The notes under the pieces are model-generated. The model saw nothing but the letters and a program-made list of their open reading frames with translations. It was not told where the DNA came from and ran no database searches. The translations under genes were made by a program, and so were the position numbers. Of a DNA stretch of 64,000 nucleotides, positions 174 to 4,281 are shown one piece after another (within the stretch, counting starts at the first letter, position 1; each line of letters begins with the position of its first letter). This stretch comes from Solobacterium sp. GTDB taxonomy: Bacteria > Bacillota_I > Bacilli_A > Erysipelotrichales > Erysipelotrichaceae. Location: positions 1 through 64,000 of the forward strand of contig JAFYHC010000059.1 of the NCBI GenBank assembly GCA_017539385.1, given 5' to 3'.

Positions 174-314
174 ATGAAACATATTTATACATCTGTACAA
201 GATCTGAAATGCATTGTTTTTAATTTGTCTGTGTGTTCATTGAAGAATTCTTTCTCTTTGTTTACGACGATTTCTGTGTCAATAACGGCGCCGAAGGTCT
301 GTTATGCTCAGTAA
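174..314 (+). CDS. short leader ORF overlapping the transposase start (46 aa)
   Basis: This is a 46-codon open frame with the best ribosome binding site in the element (AAGGAGG, 9 bases before its ATG). It ends with TAA at 312-314, inside the transposase gene, whose own ATG at 304 has only a weak ribosome binding site. The arrangement suggests that the leader couples translation to the transposase by termination and re-initiation. The peptide resembles no family I know and may have no function of its own. The two frames differ by +1, so a frameshift fusion is a less likely alternative. Confidence 0.4.
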   Translation: MKHIYTSVQDLKCIVFNLSVCSLKNSFSLFTTISVSITAPKVCYAQ

Positions 315-1638
315 TCCGCTCAGGCTTCTTGATCAGTACCTGAAAGCTGATCTTCACTGCCATATCGATCTGATCAGAGGTGATAATCCATCTTCTTTCA
401 CCCGGCAGAGGGTCATATCGATACAGGATCTTCTTCTGCAGATGTTAACCAGAAAAAACAGGACCCAATTTTCCGAAGTTATGGCTTATTATGATTCCAT
501 GAACAAATCGATGCCTGTTACTGAAAAAGCGTTCTTTACCGCCAGAAAGAAATTCAACCCTGAAGCTGTGCGCGTCATGTCCAATGAGTATATTGCAAAG
601 ATTTATGATGATTATGACGACAGTATAAAGAAGTGGAAGGATCTGGTCATATTGGGAATAGACGGCTCAAAATGCATTGTTCCGAACACGGATGAAAACC
701 GCCTGTATTTCGGTACACATGACAATGGTTCGGGCACCGCTCCTGCAATGGCACTGATATCAACACTGCATGATTCCATCAATAACCTGAAGCTCGATGT
801 TCAGGCCGATAGGATCGATGGAAATGAGAAGGATCTGGCACTCAGACATATCAATGAATACTGTGACAACTATCATCAGAAAGCGTTGTTTGTATTTGAC
901 AGGGGATATGTTTCGATCCGCATCATGGACAGAATCACGGAGCGCTCTCAGTATTTTCTGATGCGCTCAACAAGTGCTGCATACAAAAAGTATTTTGATC
1001 AGGTTGAAACCGGGGAAGACAAGGAACTAGAGATAACATTTGACAGAGTGAGTACCAATGATTACCGGAATGACAGAGCATTCCGGATCCACCTGCTCAA
1101 TACCACGTACAGATTCCGCTTCGCAAAAATAGTGATCGGAACAGATGAAGACGGCAATGAGAACGTGGAGTATCTGATAACAAATCTGCCGAAGGAAATT
1201 ATATCAACAGAAGAACTGAAAGAAGCTTACTGGCTCAGATGGGGCATTGAAACATCATATAACCGATTAAAAAACAGAATGGGGATGGAAGAATTCAGCG
1301 GGTATAAACCATACCTCATTCTTCAGGACATATATGCGGATACATGGATGTATAATCTTGTTTCGTTGAAAATCATGGAAGCGAATGAGACAAAACCTTT
1401 GGAGCAGAAAGACGGTGAATATACTGTCAGCAGGAACTTCAACAAATCCGCCGGTGTCTTGAAAACATATCTTTTGAAGTCTTTGATGACGGAAGATGAA
1501 TCAGAACAGACACGGCTGCTGGAATGCATAGACAATACTGTAACGAGCAGTCTTAACTGGGTGAAAAACGGTACCCGTTCTTTTGAGAGAAAGTCATCTG
1601 TAAATAAATCTGCAGTTTCTTACCGGAAAACATATTGA
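304..1638 (+). CDS. IS4-family DDE transposase (444 aa)
   Basis: This enzyme would catalyse cut-and-paste movement of the surrounding element. The DDE catalytic residues can be followed: Asp in the ILGIDGSK segment, Asp in LFVFDRGY, and Glu in a C-terminal block that matches the IS4 signature exactly (Tyr-2-Arg-3-Glu-6-Lys, in AYWLRWGIETSYNRLK). The length of 444 residues is normal for the family and no frameshift is seen. An in-frame stop at 283-285 makes the ATG at 304 the first possible methionine. Translation may be coupled to the short leader frame that overlaps it. Confidence 0.92.
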   Translation: MLSNPLRLLDQYLKADLHCHIDLIRGDNPSSFTRQRVISIQDLLLQMLTRKNRTQFSEVMAYYDSMNKSMPVTEKAFFTARKKFNPEAVRVMSNEYIAKIYDDYDDSIKKWKDLVILGIDGSKCIVPNTDENRLYFGTHDNGSGTAPAMALISTLHDSINNLKLDVQADRIDGNEKDLALRHINEYCDNYHQKALFVFDRGYVSIRIMDRITERSQYFLMRSTSAAYKKYFDQVETGEDKELEITFDRVSTNDYRNDRAFRIHLLNTTYRFRFAKIVIGTDEDGNENVEYLITNLPKEIISTEELKEAYWLRWGIETSYNRLKNRMGMEEFSGYKPYLILQDIYADTWMYNLVSLKIMEANETKPLEQKDGEYTVSRNFNKSAGVLKTYLLKSLMTEDESEQTRLLECIDNTVTSSLNWVKNGTRSFERKSSVNKSAVSYRKTY

Positions 1639-2842: not shown

Positions 2843-4141
2843 TTATTTGCACTCTGCTGCACCAAGATCAACACCCTGGTTGAAGTTGCGTGCGTTTTCA
2901 AGTGTAACAGCTGCGATTGCCTGCAGAGCTTCTCTTGTGAAGAATGCCTGGTGGGATGTCAGAACAACGTTCGGGAACATCAGCAGTCTTGCTGTAATGT
3001 CATTGACCAGGAAGTCATCGGAGTGGTCGGTGTAAACGTTGGCATCTTCGCCTTCATAGACATCCAGACCGACAGCGTGGAACTTGCCGTTCTTCAGTGC
3101 ATCGATCAGTGCTTCTGTATCGATCAGGCCGCCGCGTGCGGTATTGACCAGCATTGCGGTGTCTTTCATCTTTGCGATTGCATCTGCGTCGATCAGGTGG
3201 TATGTGCCCTTCGGGCCCATGATCAGCGGTGCGTGCAGGGAGATGAGGTCAGCCTTTTCAAGCAGTTCATCCTTTTCGACATAGGTCAGAAGACCTTCGT
3301 CAACGAGCTTCTGGTTCGGGAATGCATCCCAGCCGATTACGGTCATGCCGAAGCCTTTGCAGATGTGAGCCATGCACTGGCCGATCTTTCCGGTACCCAT
3401 GATGCCTGCGACTTTGTTGTGCAGGTCAACACCGAGCAGTCCGCTCAGAGCGAAGTTGTTGTCTTTGACCTTGTTAACAGCCTTGTGCATGCGGCGGTTG
3501 CAGGTCAGGATCAGTGTCATTGCATGTTCTGCAACTGCATATGGGGAATATGCCGGAACACGGGCAACACGGATGCCGCATTCTTTTGCAGCCTGCAGGT
3601 CAACGTTGTTGAAGCCGGCGCAGCGCAGCAGAATGAGTCTGACACCGCATTCATGCAGTTTTTCAACAGCACTCCGCGGGCATTCGTCATTCACGAAGAT
3701 ACATACGGCATCAAATCCCTTTGCCAGTCCGGCAGTTTCCGGTGTAAGACGGGCATTGAAATACTTGATATCGCAGTTGTATGCACCTTCACCTACATCT
3801 CTTGCCAGTTCGCTGAAGAAGATGCGGTCATAGTCTTTTGCACCGAAGAATGCAATTTTCAGAACCGGTGCTTCCTCATACCGCTTCAGTCTGTGATCCA
3901 GTTCATCCTTGATGATGGCCAGAGCAGCGTCTTCATCGCCGCCTTCTGCGCTGATTTCAAGAACGGAACCCTGCTGTGCATCCAGTCCGAGAATCTGCAG
4001 AACGTTGTCACCGTTGGCAGTGCGGCCGTTGCACTTGATGGTGATCTGCGACGGAAGCGATACACATGCCTGTGCAACAAAAGCAGCCGGACGTGCATGC
4101 ATTCCCAGAGGGCTTGTAATTTCGTACGTAATCTTTTTCAT
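2843..4141 (-). CDS. HPr domain fused to a D-2-hydroxyacid dehydrogenase (432 aa)
   Basis: Residues 1-85 are a complete HPr, the phosphocarrier of the sugar phosphotransferase system. The phosphorylated His falls exactly at position 15 (GMHARPA), but the regulatory Ser46 is replaced by Asn46 (NGRTANGDNV). After a linker of about eight residues, residues 94-432 are an NAD-dependent D-2-hydroxyacid (D-lactate type) dehydrogenase: NAD-binding GTGKIG at 249-254, catalytic Arg in NTARGG, Glu in DVYEGE and His in TSHQAF. The ATG at 4141 has a perfect AGGAGG. No frame break lies between the domains, so one polypeptide is expected. A plausible role is lactate production that senses PTS phosphorylation; this is inference. 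The gene is monocistronic. Confidence 0.9.
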   Translation of the reverse strand: MKKITYEITSPLGMHARPAAFVAQACVSLPSQITIKCNGRTANGDNVLQILGLDAQQGSVLEISAEGGDEDAALAIIKDELDHRLKRYEEAPVLKIAFFGAKDYDRIFFSELARDVGEGAYNCDIKYFNARLTPETAGLAKGFDAVCIFVNDECPRSAVEKLHECGVRLILLRCAGFNNVDLQAAKECGIRVARVPAYSPYAVAEHAMTLILTCNRRMHKAVNKVKDNNFALSGLLGVDLHNKVAGIMGTGKIGQCMAHICKGFGMTVIGWDAFPNQKLVDEGLLTYVEKDELLEKADLISLHAPLIMGPKGTYHLIDADAIAKMKDTAMLVNTARGGLIDTEALIDALKNGKFHAVGLDVYEGEDANVYTDHSDDFLVNDITARLLMFPNVVLTSHQAFFTREALQAIAAVTLENARNFNQGVDLGAAECK

Positions 4142-4281
4142 TTTTTCCTCCTGATTATTTACGTAAATGATGTCATGTAATCGGTTTCTATAAAAATGAT
4201 ACAACAATTCATGGCTGAAATATACGAAAATTACATATTGTCATAGTGATTTGTGTCATATCTTCCATATTGGATAAAGAA

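What the first reader, a model, noticed from the sequence alone, without database searches (positions are those of the whole stretch)
2843..4141. HPr phosphocarrier fused to a D-2-hydroxyacid (lactate) dehydrogenase
One uninterrupted polypeptide joins a full HPr domain to a D-lactate-type dehydrogenase. His15, the site phosphorylated by Enzyme I, is in place, but Ser46, the HPr kinase target, is Asn. This looks like a sensor fused to an end-product enzyme: PTS phosphorylation could tune lactate formation to sugar flux, while escaping HPr kinase. The domain lengths, the short linker and the perfect ribosome binding site argue against an artefact. I know of no described enzyme of this type, but cannot search.
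Basis: partly seen in the sequence, partly recalled or inferred. Interest (0 to 1): 0.78.

Follow-up and report, generated by a model that had tools for sequence, protein, structure and literature searches.

The report
Sugar-uptake sensor fused to lactate enzyme
Many rumen and gut bacteria carry a single protein that joins the phosphate-relay protein of their sugar-uptake system to the enzyme that makes D-lactate, suggesting that sugar uptake directly controls or positions lactic acid production, which no paper we could search describes.

Summary
Window 2843-4141 (-) is one intact 432-aa protein: a complete HPr domain (residues 1-80), a 12-aa linker and a complete fermentative-type D-lactate dehydrogenase. 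It is not an artefact. The same fusion occurs in 85 distinct sequences, including cultured isolates (Kandleria vitulina DSM 20405, Floccifex porci, NK3D112), and forms one clade across Erysipelotrichaceae and relatives, Lachnospiraceae and Oscillospiraceae. His15-Ala-Arg17 is invariant (78/78). Ser46 is replaced, mostly by Asn (Ser in 1/78), although HPr kinase and a separate Ser46 HPr are present in the same genome. HPr is under purifying selection (dN/dS about 0.10) and the linker length is nearly fixed. Two related genomes carry the split form, a homologous HPr gene directly upstream of ldhD. One genome carries the fusion beside ptsI and an EIIBCA gene. The best-supported reading is that the HPr domain is a PTS-status module acting in cis on D-LDH through His15 and insulated from HPr kinase. 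That architecture is shown; that phosphorylation changes activity, and in which direction, is inference. Tethering to Enzyme I is the main rival. I found no description in the open-access library. New variant of a known kind.

The parts
2843..4141 (-). hpr-ldhD fusion gene, 432 aa plus stop
4147..4152 (-). ribosome binding site AGGAGG, 5 nt from ATG
   Evidence: sequence
3902..4141 (-). HPr domain, residues 1-80 (PF00381)
   Evidence: beta-alpha-beta-beta-alpha-beta-alpha, pLDDT 90-95
4097..4099 (-). His15 codon, the Enzyme I phosphorylation site; invariant in 78/78 fusions
4004..4006 (-). Asn46 codon, in place of the HPr kinase target Ser46
3863..3898 (-). linker, residues 82-93: 12 aa in 69 of 78 fusions, variable in sequence
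2846..3862 (-). D-lactate dehydrogenase domain, residues 94-432 (PF00389/PF02826)
3134..3136 (-). catalytic Arg336
   Evidence: invariant 78/78; role from family knowledge
3047..3049 (-). catalytic Glu365
   Evidence: invariant 78/78; role from family knowledge
2951..2953 (-). catalytic His397
   Evidence: invariant 78/78; role from family knowledge

Best explanation
A bona fide fused enzyme in which a dedicated HPr domain serves as a built-in PTS-status module for a fermentative D-lactate dehydrogenase. Proposed cycle: Enzyme I~P phosphorylates His15 when PEP/pyruvate is high; when PTS sugars flow in, phosphate drains through free HPr and EIIs and the fused HPr becomes dephosphorylated. The His15 face, remodelled in the fusions and in the split homologue, then interacts differently with the LDH domain and changes its activity, most plausibly giving higher LDH activity when dephosphorylated, so lactate formation follows PTS flux. 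Loss of Ser46 removes the HPr-kinase/CcpA branch. Shown: the architecture, the conserved His15 motif, Ser46 loss, purifying selection, single origin, the split operon and the presence of Enzyme I. Inferred: phosphorylation, effect on activity, and direction.
For: Complete HPr plus complete D-LDH. His15/Ala16/Arg17 invariant in 78/78; catalytic Arg336/Glu365/His397 invariant. HPr dN/dS about 0.10 and LDH 0.054. Enzyme I in 36/37 and HPr kinase in 35/37 genomes carrying the fusion or split form. A separate HPr in 34/34 fusion genomes sampled; the own genome's separate HPr has Ser46. Split hpr-ldhD operon in two genomes of one genus: its HPr shares A23, Q24, V27, G44, V47, L48, L51 with the fusions, scoring 8 of 14 signature positions against 0-6 for 69 free HPrs, and its LDH lies next to the fusion clade. 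EIIBCA-ptsI-fusion gene cluster in G069. No L-LDH (PF02866) found in the window's genome. Precedent: E. coli proteins that recognise dephospho-HPr read the phosphorylation state of His15 (PMC6763467), and related D-LDHs are allosteric tetramers activated by FBP/Mg2+ (PMC4230899).
Against: No biochemistry. The Enzyme-I-facing surface has fewer basic residues than free HPrs (mean 1.85 against 3.57 of 14 face positions), which could weaken phosphorylation by Enzyme I. Only one of 34 fusion genomes places the fusion next to ptsI, and no neighbour is conserved across lineages. The AlphaFold model has pTM 0.72 and gives no trustworthy HPr-LDH arrangement. Conservation of His15 would also be expected for tethering or phosphate transfer.
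Confidence: 0.5

Rival explanations
1. Tether or channel: HPr docks D-LDH onto Enzyme I, whose reaction releases pyruvate, so that PTS-made pyruvate is captured for NADH reoxidation; phosphorylation matters only for docking and release.
For: Enzyme I makes pyruvate as it phosphorylates HPr (established). His15 motif conserved; near-fixed linker length; one EIIBCA-ptsI-fusion gene cluster.
Against: Basic residues used for Enzyme I docking are depleted. Enzyme I turnover is fast and pyruvate diffuses freely; pyruvate kinase makes pyruvate too. The split form would need HPr to bind LDH separately.
Confidence: 0.2
2. HPr is a structural or allosteric part of the LDH that no longer takes phosphate; His15 is kept for packing.
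For: Remodelled His15 face with loss of basic residues and fusion-specific hydrophobic or neutral residues.
Against: His15 and Arg17 are invariant in 78/78, whereas all 16 free paralogs here that lost His15 kept Ser46: residue 15 is lost when phosphorylation is not needed.
Confidence: 0.13
3. The HPr domain works as an ordinary extra phosphocarrier for EIIs and the LDH is a passenger; or HPr~P passes its phosphate to a residue of the LDH.
For: Complete HPr; in G069 the fusion sits where relatives have ptsH next to ptsI.
Against: All 34 sampled fusion genomes have separate HPrs. The fusion HPr differs strongly from free HPrs. Loss of basic face residues is not expected for a general carrier.
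Confidence: 0.12
4. Assembly, frameshift or chance artefact.
For: None; a split two-gene form exists in another lineage.
Against: 85 distinct fusion sequences in one clade, several from cultured isolates, constant length, purifying selection.
Confidence: 0.01

Closest known systems
Tetrameric fermentative D-LDHs of Fusobacterium nucleatum, Pseudomonas aeruginosa and E. coli LdhA (PDB 5z21, 5z20, 5z1z)
   Same: Whole catalytic part: 44-48% identity over the aligned D-LDH structures, Z about 30-31 with rmsd 6.4-8.8 over 313-328 residues; catalytic Arg/Glu/His kept. These enzymes are allosteric (PMC4230899).
   Different: They have no HPr domain; the fusion clade has its own LDH substitutions and short insertions.
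HPr (PtsH)
   Same: Fold, His15-Ala-Arg17 motif, length.
   Different: Covalently fused to a dehydrogenase; Ser46 replaced; remodelled helix-1/helix-2 face.
PTS fusions: FPr/FruB, multiphosphoryl transfer proteins, DhaM, IIAMan-HPr (PMC2405797)
   Same: HPr domain inside a larger polypeptide.
   Different: In those the partner domains are PTS or phosphoryl-transfer domains; here it is a fermentation enzyme.
Proteins controlled by dephospho-HPr in trans (E. coli MtlR, Rsd, glycogen phosphorylase; PMC6763467)
   Same: Proposed logic: activity reads the phosphorylation state of HPr His15.
   Different: There HPr acts in trans and the partners are unrelated to LDH; here the link is covalent and its effect untested.

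Membership tests
HPr (PF00381 / TIGR01003) | Profile match over the full domain above the curated cut-off | tested here: met
   72.1 bits against 23 (Pfam); 65.1 against 47.9 (TIGR01003)
HPr (PF00381 / TIGR01003) | Phosphorylatable His15 in the HxR motif | tested here: met
   HAR invariant in 78/78
HPr (PF00381 / TIGR01003) | Accepts phosphate from Enzyme I | not testable with these tools
   Enzyme I present in 36/37 genomes; needs an assay
Gram-positive HPr as HPrK/CcpA regulator | Ser46, the HPr kinase site | tested here: not met
   Asn in 72/78, Ser in 1/78
Fermentative D-lactate dehydrogenase (D-2-hydroxyacid dehydrogenase family) | PF00389 and PF02826 with catalytic Arg, Glu, His and the GxGxxG NAD motif | tested here: met
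Fermentative D-lactate dehydrogenase (D-2-hydroxyacid dehydrogenase family) | Pyruvate as the main substrate, NADH-dependent | not testable with these tools
   Closest characterised enzymes are pyruvate-reducing D-LDHs; no NCBIfam D-LDH equivalog cut-off is reached
Multiphosphoryl transfer protein / FPr / DhaM | HPr fused to EI, IIA or another PTS domain | tested here: not met
   Only HPr and D-LDH domains found

The most novel reading that the evidence does not exclude
A fermentation enzyme with a built-in PTS phosphorylation sensor: Enzyme I reversibly phosphorylates His15 of the fused HPr and so switches D-lactate production directly, as a covalent short-cut between sugar uptake and end-product formation that has spread by gene transfer among rumen and gut Bacillota.
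Probability: 0.42. Interest if true: 0.78.

Novelty: new variant of a known kind. Interest (0 to 1): 0.64.

Why it matters
It would be a PTS signal hard-wired by gene fusion into a central fermentation enzyme, giving a one-protein test of whether HPr phosphorylation controls end-product choice. The carriers are mostly rumen and gut bacteria. Sharpea and Kandleria, lactate producers of this order, are linked to low-methane sheep, and a Sharpea D-LDH gene was 12-fold higher in expression in such animals (PMC5069950); whether that Sharpea gene is this fusion was not established here, but Kandleria vitulina does carry the fusion. Control of lactate formation bears on methane yield and acidosis.

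Tried and rejected
Assembly or frameshift artefact: rejected. HPr borrowed from the organism's own ptsH: not supported, the own HPr lies in another part of the HPr tree (small domain, weak support). Conserved operon partners: none across lineages, 60-odd loci. Rex or cre operators upstream of the fusion: no clear enrichment over shuffles across 77 upstream regions; only the split operon L164 has a Rex-like site with 1 mismatch among the loci inspected by eye. Further split operons among about 50 LDH-only loci: none besides L164 and L233. HPr-LDH arrangement from the AlphaFold model: not usable (pTM 0.72); the structure comparison covered only residues 92-432. Literature: no paper on an HPr-LDH fusion in the open-access library; subscription papers are not covered.

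Full report
Observation. The minus-strand ORF 2843-4141 encodes 432 aa with AGGAGG five bases before the ATG. Pfam finds PTS-HPr at residues 4-79 and both D-2-hydroxyacid dehydrogenase domains at 122-423. NCBIfam agrees on the HPr family and on relatedness to D-LDHs, below any D-LDH equivalog cut-off. The nearest solved structures are tetrameric D-LDHs of F. nucleatum, P. aeruginosa and E. coli. An AlphaFold2 model from 40 fusions gives a canonical HPr (pLDDT 90-95) and a D-LDH fold, but with pTM 0.72 the arrangement of the two is not trustworthy.

Not an artefact. Close relatives and a genome-collection scan returned the same architecture in 88 full-length loci, 78 distinct at 60-97% identity, lengths 430-436 with one of 443. 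They include isolates: Kandleria vitulina DSM 20405, Floccifex porci and Erysipelotrichaceae NK3D112. Most other records are MAGs from ruminant gut. Taxonomy of MAGs is as titled by the depositors. Within the window's GTDB phylum the fusion appeared only in the same order (11 of 392 genomes); in the family of G064, a record titled Lachnospiraceae, in 6 of 200 including G064 itself, plus one split form; in the family of G078, titled Oscillibacter, in 2 of 200 including G078.

Origin. In a tree of LDH domains all 85 distinct fusions form one clade (SH-aLRT 99). The single row inside it without HPr, L080, is a fusion cut by its contig end: it starts at residue 71. Erysipelotrichaceae, Lachnospiraceae and Oscillospiraceae sequences interleave, which points to one fusion event followed by transfer between lineages (inference). 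The HPr tree, with few columns and weak support, also keeps the fusion HPrs together and away from the own genome's free HPr.

A split form. In G497 (L164) and G866 (L233), of one genus, an 86-aa HPr gene lies 102 and 80 bp upstream of a 334-aa D-LDH gene on the same strand; in L164 each gene has its own ribosome binding site. The split LDH branches next to the fusion clade. The split HPr shares A23, Q24, V27, G44, V47, L48 and L51 with the fusions: 8 of 14 fusion-signature positions, against 0-6 for 69 free HPrs and 7-14 for fusions. Two genes that are adjacent in one lineage and fused in another are classical evidence of a functional link. Whether split or fused came first is not resolved.

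The HPr domain. His15, Ala16, Arg17, Gly13, Asp69 and Glu70 are invariant in 78 fusions. Position 46 is Asn in 72, Asp in 2, Arg, Gly and Lys in 1 each, and Ser in 1 (L085). HPr kinase is present in the own genome and in 35 of 37 genomes examined, so Ser46 was lost despite the kinase. Among free paralogs, the 16 that lost His15 all kept Ser46, the opposite specialisation. dN/dS is about 0.10 for HPr and 0.054 for LDH among close relatives. The linker is 12 aa in 69 of 78 while its sequence varies. Basic residues on the Enzyme-I-facing surface fall from a mean of 3.57 in free HPrs to 1.85 (the list of face positions is from general knowledge of EI-HPr complexes); I read this as remodelling towards a new partner, but it could also weaken Enzyme I docking.

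PTS context. Enzyme I is found in 36 of 37 genomes carrying the fusion or split form (no match in G073, a draft). All 34 fusion genomes sampled have at least one separate HPr. In G069 (L047/L237) the order is EIIBCA, ptsI, fusion, on one strand, 174 bp between ptsI and the fusion, while several others (for example G071, G076) have ptsH beside ptsI. Elsewhere no neighbour is conserved. The window's genome (85% complete) shows no L-LDH.

Mechanism. Established background: Enzyme I transfers phosphate from PEP to HPr His15, and HPr is mostly dephosphorylated during uptake of PTS sugars; proteins such as MtlR and Rsd read that state (PMC6763467). Related D-LDHs are allosteric tetramers whose cooperativity is altered by FBP and Mg2+ (PMC4230899). 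The simplest combination is an LDH whose activity is tuned by the phosphorylation state of its own HPr domain, more active when dephosphorylated. The steps 'phosphorylated', 'changes activity' and 'direction' are inference. Tethering to Enzyme I is the main rival, followed by a structural role and by an extra phosphocarrier.

Novelty. Known HPr fusions join PTS or phosphoryl-transfer domains (PMC2405797). I found no description of HPr fused to a dehydrogenase, within an open-access library only. Both parts are known families; their combination and the implied cis regulation make it a new variant of a known kind.

Noticed in passing
L114, L115, L119, L127, L199, L201, L204, L205, L207, L210, L220, L225, L229, L230 (the HPr match in each): Crh-like free HPr paralogs in fusion-bearing genomes: residue 15 is Glu, Asp, Ile or other instead of His, but Ser46 is kept in all; a possible clostridial counterpart of Crh with, mostly, an acidic residue at the phosphorylation site.
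   Followed up: partly
L164:1483-2850 and L233:1483-2828: Split hpr-ldhD operon, with a Rex-like operator (1 mismatch) overlapping a -35-like sequence upstream of L164's HPr gene.
   Followed up: partly
L237:1526-6697 (same as L047): EIIBCA - ptsI - HPr-LDH gene cluster; the ptsI-fusion gap holds short repeats of GGGATTAGG type in both orientations.
   Followed up: partly
L065: MAG record titled Erysipelothrix rhusiopathiae whose fusion groups with Lachnospiraceae-titled sequences; the label is probably wrong.
   Followed up: no
window 304-1638 (+): Transposase with a DDE_Tnp_1 domain, 444 aa, near the end of the window.
   Followed up: no
window 2846-3862 (-): fusion residues 103, 108, 117, 242, 256, 267, 271, 273, 283, 290, 309, 312, 355, 364, 371, 407, 419, 421, 430: LDH positions nearly fixed in fusions and different in LDH-only relatives; candidates for an HPr-LDH interface or for changed allostery.
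   Followed up: no
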